DNA of 48,179 bases. It comes from a virus. The stretch is from positions 1 to 48,179 of IMG/VR virus record IMGVR_UViG_3300040801_002617; one strand, written 5' to 3'. The notes under the pieces were generated by a model. It saw only the letters and a list, made by a program, of their open reading frames with translations. It had not been told where the DNA came from and did no database searches. Numbering within the stretch: position 1 is the stretch's first letter; each line of letters starts with the position of its first letter. The translations under genes were made by a program, and so were the position numbers. This document shows positions 4,904 to 43,968 of this stretch, in pieces.

Positions 4904-4959
4904 TTTTTTAAATTATTTTAATTTTTTAAAAACAAAGAATTTAAAAGTTTAATTTAAAT

Positions 4960-5421: not shown

Positions 5422-5921
5422 AATGATTTATAATAATCTTTTAATTGTTTAAAATGTTTAATTGCATCTGTTCTAAAATATTCAAACATATTATAATATT
5501 TGTCTACTTGTTCGAACGGGTTTATTTCTCTATTTTTTGTAAAATCTATTCTTATATCCATTATTTTTAAAGCAGATTCTTTGAAATATTTAATAACATT
5601 TTCATATTTATTTTTTATATATTCTGGATCTTGGTTAGGAGAAATCATTAATAAAATTAATTCCATTGTTTCGTTTTCCATTAAATCTAATGAACTTTTG
5701 CATAAATTTGTATCTTCCCATATAGTATTTTCAAAATAATACTCTATTTCTATTAATTTATCAACCATCATAACCTTTTCATATTCTTCAGATTCTAATG
5801 ATTTTTTTCTTATTTCTAATAAATTTTCTTTTGTACATTTAGCAAAATAAAGCATATCAAAACATATTTCGTCAATATACTTAACTGATTCGGAAATTTT
5901 CTCTATTCTATTCAATTCCAT
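5418..5921 (-). CDS. Hypothetical helical protein, 167 aa
   Basis: Acidic, almost entirely helical soluble protein without recognised motifs. Its start lies within the end of 5908-6204, and its stop overlaps the membrane protein start at 5421, so all belong to one minus-strand transcription unit. Start context AAATTATG. Confidence 0.65.
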   Translation of the reverse strand: MELNRIEKISESVKYIDEICFDMLYFAKCTKENLLEIRKKSLESEEYEKVMMVDKLIEIEYYFENTIWEDTNLCKSSLDLMENETMELILLMISPNQDPEYIKNKYENVIKYFKESALKIMDIRIDFTKNREINPFEQVDKYYNMFEYFRTDAIKHFKQLKDYYKSL

Positions 5922-6204
5922 AATTTAAATATTTAAGTTTATGTTTTCTTATTTTAAGTTGAAAATATTGTTTTAAAATTACTTCTTCTTTGATAAAACA
6001 ATTTTTATGTGCGTTTATAATTATTGTATTGTCCTTTTTCTTTGCTGCTATTATATAATAATTATCTATTAGACAATATTTATACTTTTCTTTTAATTCA
6101 TTATAAATATCAACCCATTCTAAATAACTAGTTTGTTGATCCGTTTCCATAAATCTTCTAAATTCTGAATAAGTAGTTTCTTTTGTAAGTAAAAAATCTA
6201 TCAT
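5908..6204 (-). CDS. Hypothetical protein, 98 aa
   Basis: Small soluble protein, not recognised. The ATG overlaps the stop of 6201-6569 (ATGA), directly behind that gene's KLKKL-type tail. The C-terminus is basic (QLKIRKHKLKYLNYG). Confidence 0.6.
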   Translation of the reverse strand: MIDFLLTKETTYSEFRRFMETDQQTSYLEWVDIYNELKEKYKYCLIDNYYIIAAKKKDNTIIINAHKNCFIKEEVILKQYFQLKIRKHKLKYLNYGIE

Positions 6205-6569
6205 ACAAACAATTTTTTAAGTTTTTCCCTTCTTCTTTCTACCTTTGAAAATTGTTGAAATTTAAAAAAGTCACCTCTTATAGAAAAAAATTTTATTGGT
6301 AATTTTTGTTTCTTCTTTGTTATGTCAATTATAATAAATTTATCTATGGTTAAACCACCTAAATTAATTTTTTTAATTTTTTTTAATTCTTCTTTTAATT
6401 TATTTGGATTTTTTACTGATATTCCACTATTTATACTAATATAACCGTGTATACTAAGATTTCTTCTATAAATATAATTATTTACATTTACATAAACAAC
6501 CTTATTTTCTCCTTCAATATTAATAATAGAAAAAACAGAATATCTCTTTTGTTTTTTAGTTTTTTTCAT
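6201..6569 (-). CDS. Hypothetical protein with basic KLKKL tail, 122 aa
   Basis: Basic, beta-rich protein of unknown function. It ends in RRREKLKKLFV, one of at least nine related basic tails in this window whose DNA also forms the A-rich region in front of the next start codon. It is the first gene of the 4960-6569 minus-strand unit, and its start context is AAAAATTATG. Confidence 0.6.
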   Translation of the reverse strand: MKKTKKQKRYSVFSIINIEGENKVVYVNVNNYIYRRNLSIHGYISINSGISVKNPNKLKEELKKIKKINLGGLTIDKFIIIDITKKKQKLPIKFFSIRGDFFKFQQFSKVERRREKLKKLFV

Positions 6570-6626
6570 AATTTTTCATTTTGGAATAAATATATTTAAT
6601 ATATATTAATAAAAAAAATTTTTACC

Positions 6627-7118
6627 ATGCCGATAATATTTATAATATTTTTTACGTTAATGTTCGGATTTATAGGATTTATTACTTTATATCCACTATT
6701 AGGAAAAAAGAATAAAAACAATGATAAAATTCATAAATCTACTTTAAAATCTGTTTTAAAAAAATATAAACCTTCTAAATTAGAATTGTTTATGACAAAA
6801 AATTTTGGTTCAGAAAGCACATACAAATCTAAATGGAAATTAGGATTTGTTTTAACTCAAGTTTCCTTATTGTTAATTGGTTTTGCTAGTATCATAATTT
6901 CTGATATGTTTCCTAGATCAGATATACACTGGTATATGCTTACTATCTCAACTTATACATTTGTTATTTTATTAACATTATTAGCCGTTTTATACAGCAC
7001 TGCTAAAGTACTTAAAACAATTAGATTTAAAAAAATATCTGATGATTTGGGATATTCTATAAATCAAATAAATCAATGGGTAGATTTCCATGATATAAAA
7101 GAAAAAGACATTTTATAA
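6627..7118 (+). CDS. Hypothetical membrane protein, 163 aa
   Basis: Three membrane segments: residues 2-24, about 73-92 and about 99-125. A basic loop separates the first two, and a soluble C-terminal tail of about 35 residues follows. No family recognised. It is transcribed divergently from 6201-6569 across a 57-base AT-rich intergenic region and is followed by a paired-hairpin terminator. Confidence 0.65.
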   Translation: MPIIFIIFFTLMFGFIGFITLYPLLGKKNKNNDKIHKSTLKSVLKKYKPSKLELFMTKNFGSESTYKSKWKLGFVLTQVSLLLIGFASIIISDMFPRSDIHWYMLTISTYTFVILLTLLAVLYSTAKVLKTIRFKKISDDLGYSINQINQWVDFHDIKEKDIL

Positions 7119-8039: not shown

Positions 8040-8294
8040 ATGAAAATTGAACCAAGAATAAAAATATATAATAATTCAAAATTTAATACATATTTTTATT
8101 ACTTAAAAAAAGACGATTTAGACAACATTATAAAAAAACATTTTAAAAAAGATTTAAATTATATTGAATATAAAATAGAAGGTGAAATTTGTTATAACTA
8201 TGCCGACTATTTAATATGGTATGAAAAATTTATAAACTCTGATGAAGCATTATTATATAAACGAAAATTAAAATTAAAAAAATTAAAAAAATGA
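8040..8294 (+). CDS. Hypothetical protein with basic tail, 84 aa
   Basis: Small lysine- and tyrosine-rich protein, not recognised. It ends in YKRKLKLKKLKK, and its TGA overlaps the clpS ATG. The A-rich coding end doubles as the region upstream of the clpS start, so the pair is probably translationally coupled. Confidence 0.6.
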   Translation: MKIEPRIKIYNNSKFNTYFYYLKKDDLDNIIKKHFKKDLNYIEYKIEGEICYNYADYLIWYEKFINSDEALLYKRKLKLKKLKK

Positions 8295-8563
8295 CAGAAA
8301 CAAAAAAACAAGAAAAGGTTTTAGATAAAACCAAAAAAAAAGAAAGACATAATCTTGTATTATGGAACGATGATGTAAATTCCTTTGACTGGGTTATCAA
8401 ATCACTTATAGAAATCTGTAAACACGAATATACACAAGCCGAACAATGCGCTTTGATAGTGCATAACAAAGGAAAAGCATCAGTAAAATCTGGCGAAAAA
8501 GAAGAATTATTAAAACTAAAAAGAGAATTTGATAAAAGAAAAATATCTACAACAGTAGAATAA
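8291..8563 (+). CDS. clpS: ClpS, ATP-dependent Clp protease adaptor
   Basis: 90 residues covering the full ClpS core. Signatures are HNLVLWNDDVNSFDWVI (20-36) and AEQCALIVHNKGKASVKSG (50-68), ending with ISTTVE. The residues that bind N-degron amino termini in the family are visible (Asn26-Asp27-Asp28 and His58). ClpS hands N-end-rule substrates to ClpAP/ClpCP. The sequence is close to Bacteroidota ClpS, which supports the host call. In a phage it could redirect the host Clp protease or block N-degron turnover. Confidence 0.93.
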   Translation: MTETKKQEKVLDKTKKKERHNLVLWNDDVNSFDWVIKSLIEICKHEYTQAEQCALIVHNKGKASVKSGEKEELLKLKREFDKRKISTTVE

Positions 8564-17469: not shown

Positions 17470-18717
17470 ATGGGAAAAGATCAAAAGAAAATGGATTTTT
17501 CTTCGATAGGCGACGTTTTCGCAGGACTTTCTAAGAAAACATCTATTATAGTGGAACAAGAACAAAAAGAAAAAAAGTTTATCAACACAGGAAATTATGT
17601 CTTAAACGCATTACTTTCTAAAAATATCAGAAAAGGAGGAGTATCTGATAATAGATTAACAATATTCGCAGGACCTCCAGGATGTGGAAAAAGTTATTTA
17701 TGCTACAATATAGCAAGAAATGCCCAGAATGACGGATATAGAGTTATTTACATCGATACTGAATATGCTATCGAATTAGAAGAATTACAAAGATTTGGTA
17801 TAGATACTGATCCTGAAAAATTAATTCTTATTAGAAATAATAAAGTAGAAGATCTTAAAATCGCATTGGCTACATTATTAGATGAAATGAAAAAACAACA
17901 ACAAAATGGTGTCGATATCGGAAAAAATTTAATTGTATTAGATTCTATTGGACAGCTTGCATCCAATAAAGAATTAGAAGATGCAAAAGATGCTAAAATT
18001 AAAGTTGATATGTCAAGAGCAAAAGGACTTAAATCTTTATTCAGAGTTATTACTGCTGATATGGGTTATTTAGGTATTCCTATGATTGGTACGAATCACG
18101 TTTATATGTCACAAGATCTTTTTCCAACAGCCATAATGGGCGGAGGCGAAGGAGTTATGTATTCTGCATCAACTGTTGTTTTTATGTCAATTGCTAAATT
18201 GAAATCAGGGGACGAAAGTACCGACAGCAAAGCTTTCGTAAAAGATATAGGACAATCTGGTATCATAGTAACAGCAAAATCAAGGAAAAATAGATTAGCA
18301 AAACCAATGCAGATTAAATTTGAAATCGATTTCGACGAAGGAACAAATCCATTTAAAGGTTTAGAAGCATTTTGTACAGAAGAAAATTATGAAAAAGTCG
18401 GAATAGCTAAAGGAAAAGCAGACAAAGACGGCAATTTCCAACCAGGCGGAATAAAATATTATGTAAGACATTTAGAAAAAACTTTATACGAAAAAGAAAT
18501 TTTCACCGATGAAGTATTTACAGAAGAAGTTTTAGATAAATTAGAACCTATAATAGAAAGTTATTTCTCTTATGCGTCCTATGAAGAACAAAAGAAAGCA
18601 TATTCAAAAATGCAAAGAGAAATTCAAGAAGAAGTTGAAAAACAAGAAGAAGCAGAAGCAGCCGAAGTTGAAGAAGTTTCTAAAACAAAAGCAAAAAAAG
18701 GTCCTAAAAAATCTTAA
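17470..18717 (+). CDS. uvsX: UvsX, RecA-like recombinase
   Basis: 415 residues. Walker A GPPGCGKS at 68-75, Walker B-like strand NLIVLDSIGQLAS, and the UvsX-type segment GIPMIGTNHVYMSQDLFPTAIMGGGEGVMYSAS. An acidic, Glu/Ala-rich C-terminus (EEVEKQEEAEAAEVEEV) is followed by a lysine-rich end. The family polymerises on single-stranded DNA with ATP and performs strand exchange for recombination-dependent replication. It is first in the plus-strand replication operon, 18 bases before the helicase gene. No intein is present here. Confidence 0.95.
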   Translation: MGKDQKKMDFSSIGDVFAGLSKKTSIIVEQEQKEKKFINTGNYVLNALLSKNIRKGGVSDNRLTIFAGPPGCGKSYLCYNIARNAQNDGYRVIYIDTEYAIELEELQRFGIDTDPEKLILIRNNKVEDLKIALATLLDEMKKQQQNGVDIGKNLIVLDSIGQLASNKELEDAKDAKIKVDMSRAKGLKSLFRVITADMGYLGIPMIGTNHVYMSQDLFPTAIMGGGEGVMYSASTVVFMSIAKLKSGDESTDSKAFVKDIGQSGIIVTAKSRKNRLAKPMQIKFEIDFDEGTNPFKGLEAFCTEENYEKVGIAKGKADKDGNFQPGGIKYYVRHLEKTLYEKEIFTDEVFTEEVLDKLEPIIESYFSYASYEEQKKAYSKMQREIQEEVEKQEEAEAAEVEEVSKTKAKKGPKKS

Positions 18718-18735
18718 AATTAATTGTAAATTATT

Positions 18736-19458
18736 ATGCCTGAAAAAGTAAATGTATCAACGGAAAAATTATTTTTTAAATATATTTTGGAAAATCCAAA
18801 CCAATTTTCTAAAGTATTACCTTCTTATTTCAAGAATCACGATATATTATTTGTATATAATACCATAAGAGAAGAATATCTTAATAGTAAGAAAAAAATA
18901 GTTCCTAATCCGAAACAAATATTCACTATGTTGAAAATGCGTTCAGATGAACGAGAAATTTCAAAAGAAATTCTAAAATCTTTATTAAGTACTGATTTAA
19001 CACAATATGACGAAGATTGGTTAATTCCTAAATTTAAGTCATGGAAATTATCTAAAAGAATAGTAGATAATGTTCAAAGTTCTATTGAATATATGAGAGA
19101 ATTAGACGAGACAAATCTCGAAAATATTCAAGATATAGCCGAAAAAATCAAAAGAATATCAAACGAACTTGATTTAATCGACGATGATGATGAAGATTTA
19201 GGAGAAGATTTTGATGATCCAACAGTACATAGACAAGATGTAACAACACAGAAGATTTCTACTGGTTGGCCTTGTATGGATACTTTGTTAAACGGAGGAT
19301 GGGACTATGCTTCTCTTGTAACCATTATAGGCGAAACAAATGTTGGTAAATGTTCCGCTTATGATACTTATATCAAAATCCGTAATAAAAACAACGGAGA
19401 GATAAAAAATATAAAAATCGGAGACTTTTATAAAGATATGGTTAATTCGTCTCTCTAA
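18736..19458 (+). CDS. gp41: Replicative helicase (gp41/DnaB-like), N-terminal part fused to N-intein
   Basis: 240 residues. Residues 1-205 are the N-terminal domain and first part of the RecA-like motor of a T4 gp41-type helicase (STGWPCMDTLLNGGWDYASL), ending at GETNVGK, the Walker A motif without its final Ser/Thr. Cys206 begins an N-intein of 35 residues (CSAYDTYIKI..., block A) that runs to a stop. The other half of the protein is at 21993-23072. Joining the exteins gives GETNVGKS-MWLNN, a perfect P-loop. Activity therefore depends on protein trans-splicing. Confidence 0.9.
   Translation: MPEKVNVSTEKLFFKYILENPNQFSKVLPSYFKNHDILFVYNTIREEYLNSKKKIVPNPKQIFTMLKMRSDEREISKEILKSLLSTDLTQYDEDWLIPKFKSWKLSKRIVDNVQSSIEYMRELDETNLENIQDIAEKIKRISNELDLIDDDDEDLGEDFDDPTVHRQDVTTQKISTGWPCMDTLLNGGWDYASLVTIIGETNVGKCSAYDTYIKIRNKNNGEIKNIKIGDFYKDMVNSSL
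19351..19455 (+). other. N-terminal half of split intein (35 aa)
   Basis: Begins with Cys1 directly after the helicase Lys205. The segment CSAYDTYIKIRNKNNGEIKN is a typical block A, followed by IKIGDFYKD and a stop. Break lies before block B, unlike canonical split inteins, which break near the endonuclease site. It is comparable to the atypically split AceL-TerL and VidaL inteins. Confidence 0.85.
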
Positions 19459-19474
19459 TTTAAACGACAAATCT

Positions 19475-20563
19475 ATGGTACAATGTTTTATATGTAAAGA
19501 AAATTTTAAAAATATAACAGGATTACAAAATCACGTAAAATCTAAACACAAAGAAATACAAGTCGATGATTTTTATGATAAATTTATATCAAAAAAAGAA
19601 AAACCTAAATGTGTTTTTTGTGGAAATGTAAGTTCTTTTAATGGCTTTAAAAGAGGATATAAAAAAATATGCCATTCGGATGAATGTATATCAAAAAGTA
19701 GATCGACATATACTTTAGAGTATGGAATAAAAATGGAAGGTTTGAGTGAAAATGAAGCAATAGAAAGATTAGAAAATTTAAACAAAAAAAGAAAGAAAAC
19801 TTTTAAAAAAACTATTAATGAAATTTTAAAAGAAAATCCAAATTTTAATAAAGAAAAAAGTCACCAATGTATAGAATACTGGATAAAAAGAGGATATTCT
19901 ATCTCGGAAGCAAAAGAAAAAGTAGTCGAAGTTTTAAATAATTTACATAAAAAGACATGGGAAAAAAGAAAACAAAATCCCAATTTATATAAAGATATAA
20001 ATACTTCACAAATATTATATTGGATTAAAAAAGGATATAACGAAGAAGAAGCTCGAAATAAAGTTTCTGAAAGACAAGAAACATTTTCTAAAAAAACTTG
20101 TATTAAAAAATATGGTTACGAAAAAGGAATGGAGATATTTTTAGAAAGGCAAGAAAAATGGATTGAAAGTTTAAATAAGAATGGTAAATTAAAAGTAGGA
20201 TATTCTGAAATATCACAAGAATTGTTTAGAAATTTAGATGATAACGATTATGTTTTTTACGGAGAAAAAAATCATGAATATAATATAAAAAATAGGAGAT
20301 ATGATTATACAGATTTAAACAAAAGAAAAATGATAGAATTCAACGGTGATGTTTATCATGGAAATCCAAAATTATTTAAAAAATATGACAGACCGCATCC
20401 ATATTTAAAACATTTAACTGCGGAAGATTTATGGGATATTGATTTATTTAAAAAACGTCTATCAGAAAGTAGAGATTTTGAATTGTTAGTGATATGGGAG
20501 TCTGATTACAAGGATAATAAAAATGCTGTTATTAAAAGATGTAAAGAATTTTTGAAAAAATAA
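19475..20563 (+). CDS. Homing endonuclease, Vsr-like (EDxHD-type), with zinc fingers
   Basis: 362 residues. N-terminal C2H2 zinc finger (Cys4, Cys7, His20, His25), a second zinc site (Cys46, Cys49, Cys66, Cys71), then two copies of a helical module (YWIKRGYSISEAKEKV and YWIKKGYNEEEARNKV) likely binding DNA. The nuclease core is C-terminal: KMIEFNGDVYHGNP (Glu288, Asp292, His295), DLWDIDLFKK and LLVIWESDYK, as in Vsr-like homing endonucleases associated with split inteins. It lies between the intein halves, so it probably spreads the insertion by cutting intein-less helicase genes. Confidence 0.8.
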   Translation: MVQCFICKENFKNITGLQNHVKSKHKEIQVDDFYDKFISKKEKPKCVFCGNVSSFNGFKRGYKKICHSDECISKSRSTYTLEYGIKMEGLSENEAIERLENLNKKRKKTFKKTINEILKENPNFNKEKSHQCIEYWIKRGYSISEAKEKVVEVLNNLHKKTWEKRKQNPNLYKDINTSQILYWIKKGYNEEEARNKVSERQETFSKKTCIKKYGYEKGMEIFLERQEKWIESLNKNGKLKVGYSEISQELFRNLDDNDYVFYGEKNHEYNIKNRRYDYTDLNKRKMIEFNGDVYHGNPKLFKKYDRPHPYLKHLTAEDLWDIDLFKKRLSESRDFELLVIWESDYKDNKNAVIKRCKEFLKK

Positions 20564-20571
20564 AAAACAAA

Positions 20572-20799
20572 ATGCAGAAAATATTAGATTTTATAAAAGA
20601 AAACAAAGAAGATAAAAAAGAAATACACATTTCATACGAAATGTCTAAGATGGTGGAAAATTTCAAAGAATTCAGAAAAGAAAATATTGAACAAAACATA
20701 ACAGGAAATTATTATTGCGGTATTCTTAAATTAGACAATGAAGATATAAAAGTATATTCTAATATATTACTGGAATATGATGAAATAGAATTTAAATAA
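20572..20799 (+). CDS. Hypothetical protein in intein cassette, 75 aa
   Basis: Small charged protein, starting 8 bases after the endonuclease gene and ending 1 base before the next gene. Not recognised. Residues 1-45 are helical and the rest beta-like (NYYCGILKLDNEDIKVYSNI). Its position in the fractured-helicase cassette marks it as cargo. Confidence 0.55.
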   Translation: MQKILDFIKENKEDKKEIHISYEMSKMVENFKEFRKENIEQNITGNYYCGILKLDNEDIKVYSNILLEYDEIEFK

Positions 20800-20800
20800 A

Positions 20801-21151
20801 ATGAAAGTAAGATGTGAAAATAAGATTACTGAAAATGAATATTTAGATTTTAAAAACTGGTATGAAACTTTAAAATCCGGCATTGGAGTAGTTTATGGCT
20901 TCGAATATGATTTTAATAAAAAATTATATTATTGTTATTTGGATGATATAACATTTTGTATAAATCATATTTGGTTTAAAAACGATTGTGTTTATTTAAG
21001 TATACGAATATTAGATATAAAAAGATCTAAATTTTTTAAACAAAATTATAAACATTATAAATATAAAATAAAAAGATTTGATAAAGGTTGGTCGATTTAT
21101 AATATTTATAATTTGGTAGAAAAAAGAAAAGAAAAATTAAAAATGTTATGA
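20801..21151 (+). CDS. Hypothetical protein in intein cassette, 116 aa
   Basis: Small protein rich in Tyr, Phe and Lys, not recognised. It ends in EKRKEKLKML, and its stop overlaps the methyltransferase ATG. Same basic tail as several genes outside the cassette, so the cassette shares the translational style of the phage. Confidence 0.55.
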   Translation: MKVRCENKITENEYLDFKNWYETLKSGIGVVYGFEYDFNKKLYYCYLDDITFCINHIWFKNDCVYLSIRILDIKRSKFFKQNYKHYKYKIKRFDKGWSIYNIYNLVEKRKEKLKML

Positions 21152-21945
21152 AATCACCAATAAGATATTTCGGAGGAAAAAATGGATTTAGTAGGAAAAT
21201 ATTAGAATATTTTCCGGAAGATTATGAAAAAATGACTTATATAGAACCTTTTTGTGGTTCCTCTGCTTTATTGTTTCAAAAAAATAAATCAGATGTAGAA
21301 ATAATAAATGATATAGATCATAATATATATTCTTTATTTAAAGTTATAACTAACAAAACTAAATTCGAAAAATTTAAAAACGTTTTAGATTTAACTCCTT
21401 TTTCAGAAGAATTATTAAAAGAATATAAAAAGGATATTAAAAAATCAATTGAAGATCCTGTAGAACGAGCATATAAATATTTTTATTGTAATAGATGTTC
21501 TTTTAATTCATCAGGAAGTTTATCTATTTCTACACACGTAAGAAGAAATATGAGCAAATCTGTTTCTGATTATTTATCAGCTATTGATAAATTACCAGAG
21601 GTCCATTCGAGACTTAGTAATGTAGTTATATTAAATCGAGATGCATTAAAAGTTATTAAAAAATATGACAAACCAAATGTTTTTATATATTGTGATTCTC
21701 CTTATGCTAATGAAACAAGAAGTAGCGGTAGATATGCATTTGATTTTGCAGATAAACAACAAGATGATTATTTAAAAGTTTTGATTGAAAATAAAGATGC
21801 AAAATTGTTGATATCAGGATATAATTGTAAAAGATATTCTATTTTAGAGAAAAGCGGTTTCAAAAGAATTGATTTAGAAATAAAAACACAAAATAATAAT
21901 CTAGAAGGAAAATCTAAAATAGAATCTTTATGGATGAATTATTAA
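21148..21945 (+). CDS. D12-class N6-adenine DNA methyltransferase
   Basis: 265 residues. Starts with SPIRYFGGKNGFSRKIL, followed by SAM-binding motif I (YIEPFCGSSALLF) and catalytic motif IV as DSPYANETR near residue 184 (DSPY instead of the more usual DPPY). This is the Dam/DpnM-type alpha class (motif I before IV). Located between the halves of the split intein, next to the homing endonuclease. It may protect DNA from host restriction or from a nuclease of the cassette; the target cannot be read from the sequence. Confidence 0.88.
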   Translation: MKSPIRYFGGKNGFSRKILEYFPEDYEKMTYIEPFCGSSALLFQKNKSDVEIINDIDHNIYSLFKVITNKTKFEKFKNVLDLTPFSEELLKEYKKDIKKSIEDPVERAYKYFYCNRCSFNSSGSLSISTHVRRNMSKSVSDYLSAIDKLPEVHSRLSNVVILNRDALKVIKKYDKPNVFIYCDSPYANETRSSGRYAFDFADKQQDDYLKVLIENKDAKLLISGYNCKRYSILEKSGFKRIDLEIKTQNNNLEGKSKIESLWMNY

Positions 21946-21992
21946 ACAATTTTTATATTGCTTAATAAGAATTAAAAAACTAAAGAAAAATA

Positions 21993-22352
21993 ATGTTAAG
22001 TGAAAATATACAAAGAAAATTTATTGATACAAAATGTGTAGAAAATTGGGAAGTTTTAACCGATACTGGCTGGTCAGATATAGACAAAATAGGAAAAACA
22101 ATTGAATATGAAAAATGGATATTAAAAACCGAAAAGAATATTTTAGAATGCGCGGACGATCATATAGTATTTGACGGAGATTTTAACGAAATATTCGTAA
22201 AAGATTTAAAACCAAACACAGAAATTTTTACAAAAAATGGACTAGAAAAAGTTATTTCAGTAGAAAATTCAAAGAAAATGGAAAATATGTATGATTTAGA
22301 ATTAAATGACAAAAATCATAGATATTATACAAATGATATTTTATCGCATAAT
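21993..22352 (+). other. C-terminal half of split intein (120 aa)
   Basis: Carries block B, the beta core and block F/G, ending in His-Asn before Ser+1. With Cys1 of the N-half, the residues needed for trans-splicing are all present. There is no endonuclease domain inside either half. Confidence 0.85.
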
Positions 22353-23072
22353 TCTATGTGGTTAAATAATCTAACTATCAAAATAGCAGATTCAGGTAAA
22401 AATGTTCTTTTCGTTACATTAGAAATGGCCGCGCATAAATGCTTCAAAAGGATGGGTTCACAAAGAATGAGAATACCTATCGACGACTATGACAAATTAT
22501 CAAAAGACGAGGTTTATATGAAAAACAAAATAAACGAACTTAAATATGATAATGGAGGTATGTTCGAAAAAGAAATAGGAAAACTTTTTGTTAAAAAATT
22601 CCCAACATCGATGCTTACGGTAACAGAATTAGATAATTTTATTCATAAATTCGAGCAAAGAAAAGGAATAAAATTACATGCCGTAGTAATTGATTATATA
22701 AATATTATGGGTATAGAAAAAGGACACGATTTTACAAATATGTTATTCTTAAAAGGAAAACATTTAGCAGAAGGATTAAGATTTATAGCAGATAAACATA
22801 ATGTAACAATGATAACTGCTACACAAACAGACAAATCAGTATGGGGAGCATCGGACATTAATTTAAAGGACATTCCAGAATCTAAGGCAATCGCAGAAAC
22901 ATCAGATGTTGTTTTTGGTATAATAAGAAATCCAGAAATGAAAAAACACAATAAATATAGATTAAAAATATTAAAATTAAGAGATGGTGACTTTACAGAT
23001 GAACAAATAAGTTTCGATTTTAATACTAAATTTTTGTTGATGGAAAATGATCAATTTTACGGAGCAACATAA
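21993..23072 (+). CDS. gp41: C-intein fused to C-terminal part of gp41-like helicase
   Basis: 359 residues. Residues 1-120 are the C-intein: block B-like NILECADDHIVFDG near residue 57, KDLKPNTEI, and the terminal YYTNDILSHN with His119-Asn120. Ser121 starts the C-extein (SMWLNNLTIKIADSGKNVLF), which contains Walker B LHAVVIDYINIMG and the DnaB-family end region (ITATQTDKSVWGASDI). N- and C-exteins together make about 444 residues, close to T4 gp41. The ATG start fits the intein length; total intein is 155 residues, the size of a mini-intein. Confidence 0.9.
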   Translation: MLSENIQRKFIDTKCVENWEVLTDTGWSDIDKIGKTIEYEKWILKTEKNILECADDHIVFDGDFNEIFVKDLKPNTEIFTKNGLEKVISVENSKKMENMYDLELNDKNHRYYTNDILSHNSMWLNNLTIKIADSGKNVLFVTLEMAAHKCFKRMGSQRMRIPIDDYDKLSKDEVYMKNKINELKYDNGGMFEKEIGKLFVKKFPTSMLTVTELDNFIHKFEQRKGIKLHAVVIDYINIMGIEKGHDFTNMLFLKGKHLAEGLRFIADKHNVTMITATQTDKSVWGASDINLKDIPESKAIAETSDVVFGIIRNPEMKKHNKYRLKILKLRDGDFTDEQISFDFNTKFLLMENDQFYGAT

Positions 23073-23816: not shown

Positions 23817-26800
23817 ATGAAGAGTTATAAAAGAGAAGAAGTTTTAAAAATGGCTACAGAATATTTCAAAGGAGATGAACTAGCGGCAGGAGTATGGATA
23901 AATAAATATGCCTTAAAAGATTCGAACGGTAATATCTACGAAAAAACACCGGATGATATGCACGAAAGAATAGCAAATGAGTTATATAGAATAGAAAGCA
24001 AATATCCAAATCCAACTTCAAAAGAAGAAATATTTGAAACTATAAAAGATTTTAAATATATAATACCACAAGGAAGTCCTATGTCAGGAATTGGAAATAA
24101 TTTACAAACAGTTTCATTAAGTAATTGTTTTGTTGTCGGAAATGAAGCTGATTCTTATGGTGGTTTAATGTTAACAGACCAAGAACAAGCACAACTTATG
24201 AAAAGAAGAGGTGGAGTCGGACACGATTTGTCACACATAAGACCAAAAGGAACTGATGTTAAAAATTCAGCATTAAGTTCCACGGGTATAGTTCCTTTTA
24301 TGGAGAGATTTTCTAACACCACAAGAGAAGTTGCACAAGACGGAAGACGAGGAGCCTTGATGTTAAGTTGTAGCATAGAACATCCAGACTCCGAAGATTT
24401 CATAGACGCTAAAATGGAAACAGGTAAAGTAACTGGTGCGAATGTGTCTGTAAAAATAACAGACGAATTTATGAAAAGTGTTAATGGAGATGGAAAATTT
24501 ATTCAAAAATATCCTATAAATTCCGAAAATCCTAAAATATTTAAAGAAATAAATTCTAAAAAATTATGGAGAAAAATAATTAATAACGCATGGAATAGCG
24601 CAGAACCGGGAATTCTTTTCTGGGACACTGTGGAAAGGGAGAGTATTCCCGATTTATACTCTGATTATGGATACAAAACAACAAGTACAAATCCTTGTGT
24701 AGTAGGAGATACATTAATTGCTGTTGCTGACGGCAGAAATTATGTAAAAATAAAAGATTTGGAAAAAGAGGGAAAAGATGTACCTGTCTATACATTGGAT
24801 AACAAAGGAAACATTAAAATAAGAAAAATGAGAAATCCTAGAATAACTGGATATAATCAAAAAATATATAAAGTTAATATAGAAGGAGGACACTCTATCA
24901 GAGTAACCGGTAATCATAAATTTAGATTAAAAGACGGAACTTATAAACAAGCTGAAGATTTAAATATCGGTGATAGTTTACATGTTATGACTAAATGGGA
25001 AGCATCATTTAAAGATATTAGAAAATATGAAAATGAAGGAAGTGATTATTATTGGTTAAATAACGGAGAATTCGGAAAACACAATTCGGAGCATAGAATG
25101 ATTTATGAGGAATTAACAGGAAATAAAATAGAAAAGGGATTTGTAATACATCATAAAGATTTCAATAGCAAGAATAATAAATTAGATAATTTAGAATTAT
25201 TATCTAAACAAGAGCATGATAAAAAACATGGAAAATTAGTGGAAGGAGAAAACAATCCAAATTTTTCAAATATATCAAATGATGATATTATTTTAGAATT
25301 TAAAAAACTTACTAAAAAGTTAAAAAGAAGAATATCTTATAAAGATTGGAGAAAGCATTCAAAAGAAAATAATTTTCCTCAATATTTTTCAAATTGGAGA
25401 AAAAATTCTATAGGAACTGTTGCAACTTTGTCTAAAAAAATAGCATTAGAGTTAGGATATGAATATGTCGATGTTGATCCTAGATTAGTCAAAACTTATG
25501 AAGAAGCATTGAAAAATGGTTATGATTCAGAAATAAATGAAAATAAAGTTTTGGTTAAAAAAATATGTGAAGAATGTGGAGAAGAATTCCAAGTTAATTA
25601 CTTTAAAAGAGAAATATCATTTTGTAGTCATAATTGTTCGTTAAATTATATAAACAAGAATGAAGAATCAAAAAGAAAAAGATCTAAATCAGTAAACGAA
25701 ACTTATAGCAAAAAATCGATAGATACAAAAAATAAACAAGTAAAGATTTATAGCGATCTTAAATTTAAACTAGGAAGAATTCCAAGTTTAAAAGAATGGG
25801 AAAATTCTTGTAAAGAAGAAAAAATACCTTACAGACTAAAAACAAAATATGGTTTTAAAAATTATAAAGAAATTTGTGAAAATTCTGATATATATAATCA
25901 TAAAGTTGTTTCTGTCGAAATAGACGGAAATGAAGATGTATATAATGGAACAGTCGATGAATACCATAATTTCTTCACTGGATTCGAAGAAAAAACAAAA
26001 AATGGAAAAAGAAAGTTTATAAATATAAACCAATTAAATTGCGGAGAGATTCCATTGTGTCCATATGATTCTTGTAGACTATTACTAATAAATTTATATT
26101 CATATGTTGAAAATCCATTTACAGACAATTCTAAATTTAATTTCGAATTATTTAAAAAACACGTTTCTATTGCAATGAGATATATGGATGATATAGTAGA
26201 TTTAGAAATAGAAAAAGTAGATAAAATATTAGAAAAAATAGATTCTGATCCAGAAGATGAAAATATCAAAAAAGTAGAAAAAGAACTTTGGTATAAAATT
26301 AAAAAAATGGCAGAACTAGGAAGAAGAACAGGATTAGGAGTTACAGCAGAAGGTGATATGTTAGCATCTATGGGATTTAGATATGGTAGCCAAGAAGGAA
26401 ATAATTTTTCAGAATTAGTGCATAAAACATTAGCCATAGAAGCATACAAAAGCTCTTGTTTAATGGCAAAAGAAAGAGGTAAATTTCCTATATATGATTA
26501 TAACAGAGAAGTCGAAAATCCCTTTATTAAAAGATTGATAAATGATTGTCCTGAATTAGATACCATGTTAAGAGAAAACGGAAGAAGAAATATATCTTTA
26601 TTAACTGTCGCACCTGCTGGCACAACATCGATGATGTCACAAACAACGTCAGGAATCGAACCTGTGTTTTTACCTGTTTATAGAAGAAGAAGGAAAGTAA
26701 ATCCTAATGACAAAGATGTTAAAATAACATTTGTTGATGAAGTTGGAGATAGTTGGGAAGAATATAATGTTTTCCATCATAAGTTTTTAACTTGGTTAGA

Positions 26801-27719
26801 AGTAAATGGATATAATGTAGAAGAATTTAAAAATACAGACGAAGATAAAATACAAGAGATAGTTGAAAAATCTCCTTATTACAAAGCCACGTCTAATGAT
26901 GTAGATTGGGTTTCTAAAATAGAATTACAAGGAAAAGTCCAAAAATATGTAGATCATTCTATTTCAGTAACTTGTAATTTACCTAATAACGTAGATGTTG
27001 ATATAGTAGATAAAGTATACAGAAAAGGATGGGAAGTAGGATGTAAAGGGGTTACTGTTTATAGAGACGGTTCTCGTTCAGGTGTCCTTATATCATCTGA
27101 AAAGAAAGACAAGAAAGACAAGAAAGAAGAAGATAAAACTATAAATGAAATAATAAAAGATAGCAATGCGCCAAGGAGACCTAAAAAATTAGAATGTGAT
27201 ATAGTAAGATTTTCTAATAAAGGAGAAAAATGGATAGGATTTATAGGAGTTTTAGATGAAAGGCCATATGAAATATTCACCGGATTATTAGAATCTTTTC
27301 CAGTTCCTAATTATTTAGAAAAAGGGTATATTAAGAAATATAAAAATAAAGAAACAGGAGAAAAAAGATATGATTTCGTTTATATAGATAAAGAAGGATA
27401 TGAACAAGAAATACGTGGTTTATCGAGAGCTTTTAAAGAAGAATATTGGGATATTGCTAAAATGACATCTGCTGTATTGAGACACGGTATGCCTATTCCA
27501 TCGGTTATAAATCTTTTAGATACTTTACATATGGATGGACAATATGTAGGAACATGGAAAGCAGGTGTTAAAAGAATGCTAAAGAAATATATAAAAGACG
27601 GTGAAGATTTAGGAGAAGGTAAAAATATTTGTCCAGAATGTGGACAAGATAGTTTGACTTTTCAAGAAGGATGTGTACAGTGTATTAATCCAAAGTGTGG
27701 ATTTTCAAAATGCGGTTGA
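23817..27719 (+). CDS. nrdJ: Class II (B12-dependent) ribonucleotide reductase NrdJ with intein
   Basis: 1300 residues: 852 of NrdJ plus a 448-residue intein at 294-741. NrdJ marks are the ELAAGVWINKYALKD start, GSPMSGIGN, LSNCFV (Cys104), KRRGGVGHDLSHIRPKG, the active-site NPCGEIPLCPYDSC (split by the intein), APAGTTSMMSQTTSGIEP near 932-947, and a C-terminal cysteine cluster (CPECGQD...CVQCINPKCGFSKC) that recycles the disulfide. The enzyme reduces ribonucleotides with adenosylcobalamin and needs no oxygen. A PduO-type adenosyltransferase at 43969 could make the cofactor. Production requires splicing. Confidence 0.95.
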   Translation: MKSYKREEVLKMATEYFKGDELAAGVWINKYALKDSNGNIYEKTPDDMHERIANELYRIESKYPNPTSKEEIFETIKDFKYIIPQGSPMSGIGNNLQTVSLSNCFVVGNEADSYGGLMLTDQEQAQLMKRRGGVGHDLSHIRPKGTDVKNSALSSTGIVPFMERFSNTTREVAQDGRRGALMLSCSIEHPDSEDFIDAKMETGKVTGANVSVKITDEFMKSVNGDGKFIQKYPINSENPKIFKEINSKKLWRKIINNAWNSAEPGILFWDTVERESIPDLYSDYGYKTTSTNPCVVGDTLIAVADGRNYVKIKDLEKEGKDVPVYTLDNKGNIKIRKMRNPRITGYNQKIYKVNIEGGHSIRVTGNHKFRLKDGTYKQAEDLNIGDSLHVMTKWEASFKDIRKYENEGSDYYWLNNGEFGKHNSEHRMIYEELTGNKIEKGFVIHHKDFNSKNNKLDNLELLSKQEHDKKHGKLVEGENNPNFSNISNDDIILEFKKLTKKLKRRISYKDWRKHSKENNFPQYFSNWRKNSIGTVATLSKKIALELGYEYVDVDPRLVKTYEEALKNGYDSEINENKVLVKKICEECGEEFQVNYFKREISFCSHNCSLNYINKNEESKRKRSKSVNETYSKKSIDTKNKQVKIYSDLKFKLGRIPSLKEWENSCKEEKIPYRLKTKYGFKNYKEICENSDIYNHKVVSVEIDGNEDVYNGTVDEYHNFFTGFEEKTKNGKRKFININQLNCGEIPLCPYDSCRLLLINLYSYVENPFTDNSKFNFELFKKHVSIAMRYMDDIVDLEIEKVDKILEKIDSDPEDENIKKVEKELWYKIKKMAELGRRTGLGVTAEGDMLASMGFRYGSQEGNNFSELVHKTLAIEAYKSSCLMAKERGKFPIYDYNREVENPFIKRLINDCPELDTMLRENGRRNISLLTVAPAGTTSMMSQTTSGIEPVFLPVYRRRRKVNPNDKDVKITFVDEVGDSWEEYNVFHHKFLTWLEVNGYNVEEFKNTDEDKIQEIVEKSPYYKATSNDVDWVSKIELQGKVQKYVDHSISVTCNLPNNVDVDIVDKVYRKGWEVGCKGVTVYRDGSRSGVLISSEKKDKKDKKEEDKTINEIIKDSNAPRRPKKLECDIVRFSNKGEKWIGFIGVLDERPYEIFTGLLESFPVPNYLEKGYIKKYKNKETGEKRYDFVYIDKEGYEQEIRGLSRAFKEEYWDIAKMTSAVLRHGMPIPSVINLLDTLHMDGQYVGTWKAGVKRMLKKYIKDGEDLGEGKNICPECGQDSLTFQEGCVQCINPKCGFSKCG
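24696..26039 (+). mobile_element. Intein with HNH homing endonuclease inside nrdJ
   Basis: 448-residue intein from Cys294 to Asn741, inserted between Pro and Cys of the NPCGE active-site motif. Block A is CVVGDTLIAV, block B TGNHKF (364-369), endonuclease region SEHRMIYEELTGNKI and IHHKDFNSKNNKLDNLELL (about 424-463, HNH type), a C-x2-C...C-x3-C zinc site, block F DVYNGTVDEYHNFFTG, and INQLN before Cys+1. The residue before the final Asn is Leu instead of the usual His. Precise excision restores the RNR motif. Confidence 0.92.
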
Positions 27720-27887: not shown

Positions 27888-28799
27888 TTGGAGTTAAAAG
27901 ATTATGTTATCGAATATGAATTAGATGAAAAACCATTATGTAAGTGTGGCTGTGGAGAGGTTCCTAATTTTTATAGAGGTAAGTTTAAAGAGTATGTTAC
28001 AGAACATAACACTTTAAAATGGAAGAAGAAAAGATGGATAAAAGATAACGGATATCCAATGTGTCCTGTCTGTGTGAATATTATTGAAAAGTGGCACAGG
28101 GGCGTTCCAAACAAATACTGTTCAAAAGAATGTATGTATTCAGTTATTGATAATTTCAATCAAGAGAAAATAAGTAATAACATTAAAGAAAAATATGGTG
28201 TTGATAATGTTATGGAATTAGATTGGGTTAGAGAAAAACAGAAAAGAAACCTTCAAGAAAAGTACAAAAAAGATTTTATAAATATACAAAATAAGTTTAA
28301 ACAAACCAATTTAGAAAAGTATGGTGTAGAATATCCTCAAACTCTTACGAAGTTCAAAGATAAACAGATAGAGTCTATGATAAAGAATCATGGCGTTGAA
28401 CATTTTTCGAAGACAGAAAAATTCAGAAAAGATTCTAGTGACAGGATGTTTAAAAACAACCCTATGTTTGATCCGTTAGTTGCCGACAAGGCATCTAAGA
28501 CATATATACAGAATGTATTGTCAGGTAAGATAAAATTATATAAAATTAAGAAGTATAAAGATACTGATTTAAATTATCAGAGTTCGTATGAATATGAATT
28601 TTTAGAGTTGTGTGAGGAATTGGACATTCTTAATGATATTAAGAATGGTAATAGTTATGAATATCTGGATGAAGATAAAGATTTTGGTTTTAGGACATTG
28701 ACAGATTTCACATATAAACATATTGAGATAGAGATAAAGTCTGCTTGGATTTTGGAGAAGCAAGGTGGATGGGATAAAATTTATGCTAAGTTATGCTAA
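27888..28799 (+). CDS. Homing endonuclease, PD-(D/E)XK type (open part of broken gene)
   Basis: Open from a TTG; no ATG fits and the true start lies upstream beyond a nonsense codon. Contents are cysteine-rich zinc modules (CKCGCGE, CPVCVN, YCSKEC), three repeats around KYGV (KEKYGVDNVMEL, LEKYGVEYPQTL, KNHGVEHFSK), then a nuclease domain with YQSSYEYEFLELCEEL and TDFTYKHIEIEIKS (Asp and Glu-x-Lys). The last 30 residues are lost through a 10-bp duplication. Paralogue of 28945-29856 with richer G use, suggesting later arrival from elsewhere. Confidence 0.75.
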   Translation: MELKDYVIEYELDEKPLCKCGCGEVPNFYRGKFKEYVTEHNTLKWKKKRWIKDNGYPMCPVCVNIIEKWHRGVPNKYCSKECMYSVIDNFNQEKISNNIKEKYGVDNVMELDWVREKQKRNLQEKYKKDFINIQNKFKQTNLEKYGVEYPQTLTKFKDKQIESMIKNHGVEHFSKTEKFRKDSSDRMFKNNPMFDPLVADKASKTYIQNVLSGKIKLYKIKKYKDTDLNYQSSYEYEFLELCEELDILNDIKNGNSYEYLDEDKDFGFRTLTDFTYKHIEIEIKSAWILEKQGGWDKIYAKLC

Positions 28800-28944: not shown

Positions 28945-29856
28945 ATGATTTTAGAAGAATATACATACGTAAAATTAAACGGTAGAAATATCCCTTATTT
29001 TAAAGATAAGGGATATTTCGGCGTTAAAGATGATATAATCAAAGTAAGGACCGTGGATTTAAATCACGGAAGTTCCATTAAAATTTTGGTAAAATGTCAT
29101 TTATGTGGATTAGAAAAAAGAACAATATATTATAACTACAGGAAATGTGTAGATAAACATGGTTATTATACTTGTTCCAGAAAATGTTCACAAAACAAAA
29201 TAGAAAAAACTTGCATGGATAAATATGGCTGTCCAAATCCATTTCAAAACGAAGATATAAAAAAAAAGATAAAAAATACTTTGTTTGATAAATATGGAGT
29301 TTTTCATCCTATGTTATCAGAAGAAATAAAAAATAAATTAAAAGAAACTAATTTACAAAGATGGGGTTGCGAATGGGTATTTGAAAATGAAGAAGTACAA
29401 GAAAAAATATTTAAAACAATGATGCGTAAATATGGATGTAAATATGCATTACAGAATAAAGAATCTTGTGAAAAATTTATAAAAAATTGTGATTTCGATA
29501 AATTATTCAAAAATGCTATAAAAATTAAAAATTATAAAAATACAAAACTTTATTATCAAGGTTCATATGAATTGGATTTTTTAAAATTGTGTGAAAAATT
29601 AGGAATATTAAACAATATAAAAAACGGAAATATATATAATTATATTGAAGAAGATAAAAATTATGGATATAGAACTTTAACTGATTTTTCTTATGAAAAT
29701 TTAGAAATAGAAATAAAATCGAATTGGATATTAGAAAAACAAGGAGGAATAGAAAAATTAAATGCAAAAAGAAGAGCAGTGGAAAAACAAGATAAAAATT
29801 ATATTTTGATAATTGAAAAAACTTATGATGAATTTTTAAATAAAATAAAAAAATAA
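28945..29856 (+). CDS. Homing endonuclease, PD-(D/E)XK type, apparently intact
   Basis: 303 residues. Zinc site Cys51/Cys54/Cys77/Cys81, four repeats of the KYG type (MDKYGCPNPF, FDKYGVFHPM, LQRWGCEWVF, MRKYGCKYAL) that probably read DNA, and a nuclease domain from about 198 with YYQGSYELDFLKLCEK and catalytic Asp247, Glu256-x-Lys258 (TDFSYENLEIEIKS). Intact version of the broken neighbour. Freestanding homing endonucleases close to an intein-bearing nrdJ may cut the same or neighbouring alleles. Confidence 0.8.
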   Translation: MILEEYTYVKLNGRNIPYFKDKGYFGVKDDIIKVRTVDLNHGSSIKILVKCHLCGLEKRTIYYNYRKCVDKHGYYTCSRKCSQNKIEKTCMDKYGCPNPFQNEDIKKKIKNTLFDKYGVFHPMLSEEIKNKLKETNLQRWGCEWVFENEEVQEKIFKTMMRKYGCKYALQNKESCEKFIKNCDFDKLFKNAIKIKNYKNTKLYYQGSYELDFLKLCEKLGILNNIKNGNIYNYIEEDKNYGYRTLTDFSYENLEIEIKSNWILEKQGGIEKLNAKRRAVEKQDKNYILIIEKTYDEFLNKIKK

Positions 29857-30423: not shown

Positions 30424-30694
30424 ACAATTAATATTAGTGTTTTATATCAATGTAGAAGGATTGTCTAGACTACAAGCCAATGAATATATAGAAAGTATTT
30501 ATACTTTACATAAAGAAAATGGTTTTTATAATATCTTTTTGCCAGTTAATGATCAGAAAACAAAAGTAGAATTATTGTGTACAAAAGAGTTAGATCCTAT
30601 TTCAAAAGAAAAAGTCGATAAAATGTATGAGAAAATTAACGATTTATATTGTGATGAAGTAGAAAGAAGAAAAAGAAAAATAAGAAAATTATGA
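30416..30694 (+). CDS. Hypothetical protein, 92 aa
   Basis: Start chosen at MSEQLILVFYINVEG, which overlaps the upstream stop. The alternating strand-helix pattern (LILVFYINVEGLSRLQANEY) suggests a small ferredoxin-like fold. Ends in RRKRKIRKL, whose DNA forms the A-rich leader of the RlmN-like gene with ATGA overlap. Confidence 0.6.
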   Translation: MSEQLILVFYINVEGLSRLQANEYIESIYTLHKENGFYNIFLPVNDQKTKVELLCTKELDPISKEKVDKMYEKINDLYCDEVERRKRKIRKL

Positions 30695-31476
30695 AAGAAA
30701 TAAGAAGTAAAGAATTTTCAAATGGTAAAGTTTATGCATTAGAATTGAACGATGGATTTTTAGTAGAAACTACAGATACATTCTTACCATTTTATACAAA
30801 AGATTCTATAGGAGAAAAACAAAATTTTTTAAAAGATTATGAAATAGGAGACAGATCAGAAAGATGGATGATAGGCGTTTCGGTTATGTCTGGTTGTCCG
30901 GTAAGGTGTAAATTTTGTGCAACTGGGCAAATGAAAAAATGGAGAAATCTAACAAGCGACGAAATAATTGAACAAGTAGAATTTATAATAAACTCAAATC
31001 CCGAATTTAATCCTAAAAATTCAAAGGAATTTAAAATAAATTACACAAGAATGGGAGAACCTTTTTTAAATATAGAAAATGTTAAAAAGGCAATAAATAT
31101 TATCAATAAAAAATATTCAAATGTACATCATTATGTTTCTACTATAGGTATAAAAGGAAGTGATTTTTCATGGATAAAAAATAATATAACATTACAATTA
31201 AGTTTACATTCACTAGAAGAAGAAAGGAGAGATTGGTTAATACCTTATAAGAAAAAATTAAAAATAAAAGAATTAGGAGAAATAAGAACAAATAGTAATT
31301 TAAAAACAACTTTAAATTTAACTTTAGTGGATGAAAAAGACTTTGATATTGATTTATTAACTAAATATTTCGATAAAGAATATTTTTTTGTAAAAATATC
31401 TCCTATTAACGAGAATGAATATTGTGTATTAAATGATATAGGAAAAGGTATAATAGATGGTAAAAATTTAATTTAA
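30691..31476 (+). CDS. RlmN-like radical SAM protein, lacking its C-terminal catalytic segment
   Basis: 261 residues. Cluster motif CPVRCKFCATGQ, then RMGEPFLN, YVSTIGI and LQLSLHSLEEERRDWLIP, in the order seen in RlmN/Cfr enzymes, which methylate adenine C2 (RlmN) or C8 (Cfr) in rRNA or tRNA. The N-terminal RNA-binding helical domain is short or absent. It stops at the end of the barrel (VKISPINENEYCVLNDIG...KNLI), before the region holding the second catalytic Cys (AACGQL). That segment occurs in a separate ORF at 31794-31916. Confidence 0.8.
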   Translation: MKEIRSKEFSNGKVYALELNDGFLVETTDTFLPFYTKDSIGEKQNFLKDYEIGDRSERWMIGVSVMSGCPVRCKFCATGQMKKWRNLTSDEIIEQVEFIINSNPEFNPKNSKEFKINYTRMGEPFLNIENVKKAINIINKKYSNVHHYVSTIGIKGSDFSWIKNNITLQLSLHSLEEERRDWLIPYKKKLKIKELGEIRTNSNLKTTLNLTLVDEKDFDIDLLTKYFDKEYFFVKISPINENEYCVLNDIGKGIIDGKNLI

Positions 31477-31922: not shown

Positions 31923-32687
31923 ATGAAAAATTTACTAAAAAAGTATCATCCCGAAGGTGTTAGAGTTGTGGGTACTTATAATTGTAAAAGAAATTGTAAA
32001 TTTTGCTATCAAAAAAGTAGAAAATCTGATGTACTTTCTTTAAATAAATATAACAGCATTTTACAAGAAATGATGGAAAATAAATTTAATCCAATTTATT
32101 TTACTTTTCAAGGAGGAGAAATATCTGATTATCCTGACGAATCTTATGAATGGATAAAATCGACAGATAAATTTTTTCCACAAGTTTTTAGAAAATCTAT
32201 AACAAGTAATGGATTAGGTGATATAGATTATTATAAAGACTCTAAATTGATAGGCATAACACACATAACTTTTTCTTTACATAATTCTAATTTTAAAGAA
32301 GTAGAAGAAAAATTATTAATATTAAAAAACGATGGTTTCTTTACTGTTAGAGTAAATTGTTTTTTAGATTTTGATAACGTAGATAATGTAAAATATGTTT
32401 TTGAATTTTGTTCAAAAAATAATATACAATTAACATTATGTGAAGATTTAAGATTAGATCAAAAAGTCGACAAATTAAAATCTGAATCTTTTCTTTTAGA
32501 AAATAAAATAATAGACGATTCGTATAATTTAGATATATATAAACATCAAACAATTTTTTCAAGTATTAAAAATAATTATAGGTTTTGGGTATATAAGCAC
32601 TTAGACCATTATGATTATAATAATATAATAATAAAACCAGACGGTGATATTACAATGACATTTGATGATATAATAAATTCAAAATAA
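31923..32687 (+). CDS. Radical SAM protein, MoaA/AnSME-like
   Basis: 254 residues. Cluster motif YNCKRNCKFCYQKS (Cys at about 20, 24, 27), SAM-binding TFQGGEISDYP and later strands ITHITFSLHN and FFTVRVNCFLD. No extra C-terminal iron-sulfur SPASM domain. The substrate is unknown. It is followed by a methyltransferase-like gene (3-base gap), so both may modify one target. Confidence 0.8.
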   Translation: MKNLLKKYHPEGVRVVGTYNCKRNCKFCYQKSRKSDVLSLNKYNSILQEMMENKFNPIYFTFQGGEISDYPDESYEWIKSTDKFFPQVFRKSITSNGLGDIDYYKDSKLIGITHITFSLHNSNFKEVEEKLLILKNDGFFTVRVNCFLDFDNVDNVKYVFEFCSKNNIQLTLCEDLRLDQKVDKLKSESFLLENKIIDDSYNLDIYKHQTIFSSIKNNYRFWVYKHLDHYDYNNIIIKPDGDITMTFDDIINSK

Positions 32688-43967: not shown

Positions 43968-43968
43968 T

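What the first reader, a model, noticed from the sequence alone, without database searches (positions are those of the whole stretch)
19351..22352. Helicase gene fractured by an atypically split intein
Seen directly: the helicase stops 35 codons after GETNVGK, and the rest of it starts 2.5 kb later behind 120 intein-like residues ending in His-Asn before Ser. The break is before block B, whereas most natural split inteins break after it. Known relatives are the atypical AceL-TerL and VidaL inteins and the 'fractured genes' found in metagenomes. Together the halves make a 155-aa mini-intein with all splice residues. If functional, the phage depends on trans-splicing to get an active replicative helicase.
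Basis: partly seen in the sequence, partly recalled or inferred. Interest (0 to 1): 0.88.

Follow-up and report, generated by a model that had tools for sequence, protein, structure and literature searches.

The report
Phage helicase split by trans-splicing intein
A large phage encodes its DNA-unwinding enzyme in two separate genes, each carrying half of a self-splicing protein element that should join the two pieces exactly at the ATP-binding site; it is a clear new example of a rare but known arrangement, and it belongs to a wide phage family of such elements.

Summary
Confirmed. The gp41/DnaB-like helicase is broken between the Lys and Ser of its Walker A motif (GETNVGK|S). The upstream gene ends in a 35-aa N-intein; the downstream gene begins with a 120-aa C-intein ending SHN|S. 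The 2.5 kb between carries an EDxHD/Vsr-type homing endonuclease, two small ORFs and a Dam-type methyltransferase. Joined exteins (444 aa) align to intact 448-aa helicases without a gap at the junction. The intein is real: profile matches to solved inteins (VidaL 1.4e-11, AceL/GOS consensus Cat 7.6e-10, gp41-1 2.1e-9), and a contiguous homologue models as an intein (pLDDT 94, VidaL Z 21.7). The break lies after the first helix, as in AceL/GOS-TerL. An independent contig (L003) has the same arrangement; 37 loci have both halves, and the C-intein is under purifying selection. It is a new member of a known kind: atypically split intein, fractured gene, classic P-loop site. What adds interest is breadth: homologous inteins sit at GK|S/T in helicases, terminases, Clp ATPases, SbcC and another AAA ATPase, mostly split, some contiguous. 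Splicing itself is inferred, not shown.

The parts
18736..19350 (+). N-extein: first 205 aa of gp41/DnaB-like helicase, ending in Walker A ...GETNVGK
   Evidence: phrog_19 4.8e-20; 51-53% identity of joined exteins to intact helicases
19351..19458 (+). N-intein, 35 aa (CSAYDTYIKIRNKNNGEIKNIKIGDFYKDMVNSSL) plus stop TAA; atypically short, ends after helix alpha1
   Evidence: Cys1 after GK in all 37 loci, with RNK..GEI and IGDFY-like motifs in most
19475..20563 (+). Free-standing homing endonuclease, 362 aa: N-terminal C2H2-like zinc finger, C-terminal EDxHD/Vsr nuclease domain (IEFNGDVYH)
   Evidence: phrog_22677 1.8e-17; Aes123 'putative VSR endonuclease' 6e-12; structural match to Vsr Z 9.3 and I-Bth0305I Z 7.9; homologues in 26 of 37 inserts
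20572..20799 (+). 75-aa ORF of unknown function that accompanies the endonuclease
   Evidence: homologues at the same place in L003 and L018-L020 inserts; dN/dS 0.14 vs L003
20801..21151 (+). 116-aa ORF, unknown function
   Evidence: open frame only; no family match
21148..21945 (+). D12-class (Dam-type) adenine-N6 DNA methyltransferase, cargo of the insert
   Evidence: PF02086 6.9e-21; TIGR00571 2.9e-23 but below that family's cut-off; 65% identical to a gene elsewhere in huge phage LR745206
21993..22352 (+). C-intein, 120 aa, with own ATG; block B CADDH, block F MYD...NH, block G ILSHN
   Evidence: TIGR01443 intein_Cterm over its cut-off of 15.6 bits, on the fused intein (20.0) and on the C-part alone (17.3); VidaL/gp41-1/Cat matches
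22353..23072 (+). C-extein: last 239 aa of the helicase, starting with the Walker A Ser (+1 nucleophile), plus stop
   Evidence: PF03796 4e-15; phrog_19 6.4e-40

Best explanation
This is a fractured gene. The replicative helicase is made as two proteins, each carrying half of a class 1 split intein cut at the atypical S2 position (N-intein 35 aa, C-intein 120 aa). The two halves bind (opposite net charge, +2 and -9, may help), fold into one intein domain and splice in trans. Cys1 of the N-intein and Ser+1 act as nucleophiles and the terminal Asn cyclises. The product is the 444-aa helicase. Because the cut is between the Walker A Lys and Ser, neither half contains a complete nucleotide-binding loop, so ATPase and helicase activity should depend strictly on splicing. 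The EDxHD/Vsr-type nuclease between the halves would cut intein-free helicase alleles near the P-loop codons, so that repair copies in the whole cassette (homing). The 75-aa and 116-aa ORFs and the Dam-type methyltransferase are passengers or helpers of that cassette. Shown here: gene anatomy, family membership, fold (of a contiguous homologue), conservation, empty-site alleles. Inferred: splicing, dependence on it, homing, role of the passengers.
For: Precise anatomy. Contiguous profile coverage across the break. Joined exteins 51-53% identical to intact helicases of a 735-kb phage and an IMG/VR contig, no gap at GK^S. Intein family by profile: VidaL 1.4e-11, CatC 7.6e-10, gp41-1 2.1e-9. Model of the contiguous homologue L049: pLDDT 94, VidaL Z 21.7, with its lowest-confidence block at residues 31-40, where the split forms are cut. 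Same arrangement in L003, 74% identical in the C half. 37 loci with both halves, all Cys1 and HN|S/T, always after GK. C-intein dN/dS 0.08-0.24, also in loci without an endonuclease. Endonuclease homology to the 'VSR endonuclease' of the Aes123 split polB gene and fold match to Vsr and I-Bth0305I. No second DnaB_C.
Against: No experiment. The window's own halves were not modelled as a complex (only a contiguous homologue was). The phage genome is incomplete (48 kb; its relatives are huge phages of several hundred kb), so a second helicase elsewhere cannot be excluded. No clear ribosome-binding site was seen by eye for the C half. The N-intein is short, so its own selection estimate (pN 0.30, pS 0.78) is weak.
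Confidence: 0.93

Rival explanations
1. An RNA intron, not an intein, interrupts the gene: the mRNA is spliced and one continuous intein-bearing or intein-free protein is made.
For: Phage introns can carry EDxHD/Vsr-like endonucleases (PMC12350094).
Against: No Rfam match in the window. The split halves are conserved as protein on both sides in 37 loci. In six loci the gap is only 43-213 bp, and in five of them at most 125 bp, too short for a known self-splicing intron. The C half has its own ATG in nearly all loci.
Confidence: 0.02
2. The helicase gene is a decaying pseudogene; the halves do not splice and another helicase does the work.
For: The record is a genome fragment, so another helicase cannot be ruled out here.
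Against: Purifying selection on N-extein 0.21, C-intein 0.19, C-extein 0.12. Intact frames in two diverged phages. Single DnaB_C over the cut-off in each of ten records with fractured helicases, including a complete Vibrio phage genome.
Confidence: 0.03
3. The two fragments assemble non-covalently into a working two-piece helicase, the intein remnants being only a docking device.
For: Fragment complementation exists for some enzymes (own knowledge); the atypically split intein halves must associate anyway.
Against: Walker A is cut between Lys and Ser and would carry 35 and 120 extra residues in the active site. The splice-junction residues are kept in 37 loci, which docking alone would not require.
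Confidence: 0.01
4. Assembly artefact or chimaeric contig joining two different helicase genes.
For: The window is a metagenomic viral record.
Against: The same gene order with homologous endonuclease and 75-aa ORF is in an independent contig from another sample (L003, 57-74% identity). Exteins of both halves match the same intact helicases.
Confidence: 0.01

Closest known systems
AceL-TerL and GOS-TerL atypically split inteins (and the Cat consensus)
   Same: Short N-intein ending after the first helix (S2 position; 25 and 37 aa, PMC13014065 and PMC11766414) and a long C-intein; CatC matches the family profile at 7.6e-10.
   Different: Host gene is a replicative helicase, +1 is the P-loop Ser, C-intein 120 aa; only 31% identity between CatC and the contiguous homologue.
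VidaL intein (6vgv)
   Same: Closest solved structure by profile (1.4e-11) and among the closest by fold (Z 21.7); Ala in the block B Thr position, long C-part.
   Different: VidaL is cut after beta2 (S1, 16-aa N-part, PMC13014065); ours after alpha1 (35 aa).
gp41-1 type split inteins and 'fractured genes' (Dassa et al. 2009)
   Same: Split gp41 helicase genes and endonuclease genes between halves were described there (own knowledge; the paper is not held); profile match to gp41-1 2.1e-9.
   Different: gp41-1 has the canonical split (about 90/37 aa, own knowledge) and another insertion site; here S2 split at GK|S.
Aes123 phage split polB locus (JN377899)
   Same: Same architecture: N half, putative VSR endonuclease, C half; homologous endonuclease (6e-12).
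   Different: Different host gene, canonical split, cysteine-less intein.
Vibrio phage vB_VmeM-32 gp41 (KU160494, isolated phage)
   Same: P-loop of gp41 fractured by an atypically split intein (27-aa N-part) with a homologous endonuclease between the halves; halves not annotated in the record.
   Different: Inserted earlier in the P-loop (GVN|TGKS) and a divergent intein.
Contiguous P-loop inteins of the same family (L049, L054 helicases; VAP7 terminase)
   Same: Homologous intein at the same GK|S/T site.
   Different: Not split; no endonuclease inside.

Membership tests
Class 1 intein | Cys/Ser at position 1, terminal His-Asn, Ser/Thr/Cys at +1 | tested here: met
   C1, H154-N155, S+1 in the window; C1, S153, H154, N155 invariant in alignment A5
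Class 1 intein | Block B His and block F Asp | tested here: met
   H92 and D136 of the fused 155-aa intein invariant; block B Thr replaced by Ala, as in VidaL
Class 1 intein | Hint/intein fold | tested here: met
   Contiguous homologue L049 modelled at pLDDT 94; VidaL Z 21.7, rmsd 1.6 over 137 residues. The window's own halves were not modelled together
Naturally split intein | Halves on separate ORFs fused to the two parts of one host protein | tested here: met
Naturally split intein | Trans-splicing activity | not testable with these tools
   needs expression of both halves
Atypical S2 split class (AceL-TerL, GOS-TerL) | Break after the first alpha-helix, N-intein about 25-37 aa | tested here: met
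   N-intein 35 aa; helix 23-31 then low-confidence loop 31-40 in the homologue model; definition from PMC13014065
Fractured gene arrangement | Free-standing homing endonuclease gene between the intein halves | tested here: met
   ORF 19475-20563; homologues in 26 of 37 related inserts
EDxHD (Vsr-like) homing endonuclease | Vsr-like catalytic domain with E..D..H motif | tested here: met
   IEFNGDVYH; VIA-align Z 9.3 to Vsr, 7.9 to I-Bth0305I, next unrelated 4.8; Foldseek E-values alone not significant; 29% identity to Aes123 VSR endonuclease, 6e-12
EDxHD (Vsr-like) homing endonuclease | Cleaves the intein-free allele and drives homing | not testable with these tools
   needs a cleavage assay
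Group I/II intron | Catalytic RNA core at the break | tested here: not met
   no Rfam match at gathering threshold in the window

The most novel reading that the evidence does not exclude
The window belongs to one lineage of mostly atypically split inteins that has specialised on the GK|S/T codons of P-loops. It has moved, with its EDxHD nuclease, between non-orthologous phage genes (replicative helicase, large terminase, both ATPase sites of Clp proteins, SbcC, another AAA ATPase). Its insert serves as a docking site for further genes such as the Dam-type methyltransferase here.
Probability: 0.6. Interest if true: 0.62.

Novelty: new member of a known kind. Interest (0 to 1): 0.5.

Why it matters
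If it splices, this phage's replicative helicase exists only as a trans-spliced product, rebuilt exactly inside its ATP-binding loop, so replication would depend on it. More widely, the related loci found here (37 with both halves located; roughly nine in ten split among 91 C-inteins, by automatic calls plus hand correction) give a natural series from contiguous mini-intein, to split intein with endonuclease, to split intein with the endonuclease lost. That makes it testable how atypical split inteins arise, and it supplies many new short N-inteins (27-57 aa) for protein labelling.

Tried and rejected
RNA intron: no Rfam match in the whole window. tRNA/tmRNA near the break: none. Promoter and terminator scan: no excess over shuffles, so nothing claimed. 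Repeats flanking the insert: only AT-rich chance-like repeats, no target-site duplication. Bacterial and archaeal genomes: no relative of the C-intein found. Several mixed alignments of N-only and C-only rows were misaligned by MAFFT and not used; the model was made from contiguous homologues plus trimmed C-parts. Foldseek alone gave no significant hit for the endonuclease; the Vsr assignment rests on VIA-align, the motif and the Aes123 homologue. L034 and L095 look contiguous only because the endonuclease region happens to be open in frame; counted as split. The C-intein tree has 104 columns and is poorly resolved, so no order of host switches is claimed.

Full report
What is there. The window holds uvsX (17470-18717), then a 240-aa ORF (18736-19458) that is the first 205 residues of a gp41/DnaB-like helicase followed by 35 extra residues, then four ORFs on the same strand, then a 359-aa ORF (21993-23072) of 120 extra residues followed by the remaining 239 residues of the helicase. 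The replicative-helicase profile phrog_19 covers positions 160-366 in the first ORF and 368-574 in the second. When the extra residues are left out, the halves give 444 aa that align with the 448-aa helicases of a 735-kb uncultured phage (LR756501) and of IMG/VR contig L005 at 51-53% identity, without a gap at the junction GETNVGK^SMWL. The cut is between the Walker A Lys and Ser, the 'classic' P-loop intein site (PMC5050341).

It is an intein. The C-part passes NCBIfam's intein_Cterm cut-off on its own (17.3 against 15.6 bits; 20.0 on the fused sequence). A profile of 14 fused or contiguous family members matches solved inteins: VidaL 1.4e-11, Cat consensus 7.6e-10, gp41-1 2.1e-9, and more weakly PolB16, NrdJ-1 and others. 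A contiguous homologue in another helicase (L049) is modelled with pLDDT 94 and has the intein fold (VidaL Z 21.7, rmsd 1.6, 137 residues). The model's lowest-confidence block, residues 31-40, follows the first helix (23-31). That is where the window's N-part ends. The literature calls this the S2 split, known from AceL-TerL and GOS-TerL, while VidaL and PolB16 are cut one element earlier (PMC13014065; PMC10189870). The catalytic residues are present: Cys1, block B His, block F Asp, penultimate His, terminal Asn, +1 Ser. The block B Thr is Ala, as in VidaL.

It is conserved and selected. Contig L003 from another sample has the same split, endonuclease and 75-aa ORF. A search with the C-part found 56 viral loci. 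In 37 distinct loci, the window included, both halves could be located: N-part 27-57 aa, always after GK and beginning with Cys; C-part 113-146 aa, nearly always with its own ATG and always ending HN|S/T. dN/dS between window and L003 is 0.21 (N-extein), 0.19 (C-intein), 0.12 (C-extein), 0.29 (endonuclease). dS is near saturation, so these are rough. Other pairs give 0.08-0.24 for the C-intein, also where the endonuclease has been lost. N-parts are mostly positively charged and C-parts strongly negative (window +2 and -9), which would favour association; that step is inference.

The insert. The 362-aa ORF next to the N half has a C2H2-like finger and a C-terminal domain with IEFNGDVYH. It is homologous to the 'putative VSR endonuclease' between the split polB halves of Aeromonas phage Aes123 (6e-12). 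Its model matches Vsr (Z 9.3, 8.3) and the EDxHD homing endonuclease I-Bth0305I (Z 7.9), well above the next, unrelated chain (4.8). Homologues lie in 26 of the 37 inserts, and six inserts have shrunk to 43-213 bp. The window's insert is the largest (2,534 bp) and carries a D12 methyltransferase. Its closest phage relative found is a gene about 225 kb from the helicase of another huge phage (LR745206, 65% identity), so it looks like a passenger. The 75-aa ORF accompanies the endonuclease in three kinds of locus (window, L003, L018-L020).

Wider family. A search from the contiguous forms widened the set to 91 C-inteins. Pfam and PHROG matches of representative host proteins show five kinds of host: DnaB/gp41 helicase, T4-type large terminase, Clp-type AAA+ protein (both ATPase sites), SbcC-like nuclease subunit, and another AAA ATPase. 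The rest were assigned from their C-extein sequence by pattern and by eye. In all loci where the N-side was read the cut is at GK|S/T. About nine in ten are split. Contiguous forms occur in helicase, terminase and Clp (L049, L054, L068, L079, L083, L108, L111, VAP7). Homologous inteins in non-orthologous genes imply movement between genes; the tree is too poorly resolved to say in which order (11 host changes against 42.9 in shuffles).

How it most likely works: as in Best explanation. The order of evolution suggested by the series (contiguous mini-intein, endonuclease gene inserted after the first helix, later loss of the endonuclease) is inference.

Known or new. Each ingredient is known: fractured genes with EDxHD nucleases, S2-split inteins, P-loop insertion, split gp41. 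I found no report of an S2-split intein in a replicative helicase, nor of this P-loop family, in the papers held, but the key paper (Dassa et al. 2009) is not held, so absence is weak evidence. I file it as a new member of a known kind with an interesting family behind it.

Noticed in passing
L003:2718-5152: The uvsX recombinase of L003 is also fractured, by a split intein of the canonical type (long N-part, about 40-aa C-part), with a 242-aa ORF between the halves; the window's uvsX is intact.
   Followed up: partly
L003:3713-4441 and L003:7213-7899: The ORFs in the uvsX insert and in the gp41 insert of L003 both match an ORF at L006:6445-7149 and look related; the second has a weak ADP-ribosyltransferase-like match (PF15633, 0.065, below cut-off).
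   Followed up: partly
L131:1415-4490 (KU160494, Vibrio phage vB_VmeM-32): An isolated phage with a gp41 gene fractured at GVN|TGKS by an atypically split intein (27-aa N-part), endonuclease between the halves; the record annotates neither half as helicase. Its uvsX is split too.
   Followed up: partly
window 23817-27719: The large subunit of ribonucleotide reductase carries a contiguous intein with an HNH endonuclease domain (PF14890 2.6e-15, PF13392 2.1e-11).
   Followed up: no
window 27888-28799 and 28945-29856: Two paralogous 303-aa ORFs in tandem behind nrdA, related to each other (5.7e-38) and to ORFs in other intein-bearing loci; probably further homing endonucleases.
   Followed up: no
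L034 end of ORF 4810-6996: This terminase has the P-loop split intein and, further on, begins a second N-intein-like tail (QEME|CVGEDTVITVRNKNTGNIEKITIGELYSKIE).
   Followed up: no
window 8291-8563: ORF that looks like a ClpS adaptor (by eye only), unusual in a phage.
   Followed up: no
window 38251-40137, 30691-31476, 31923-32687, 43933-44517: DnaK-like chaperone, two radical-SAM-like proteins and a cobalamin adenosyltransferase-like protein (by eye), in keeping with a huge phage.
   Followed up: no
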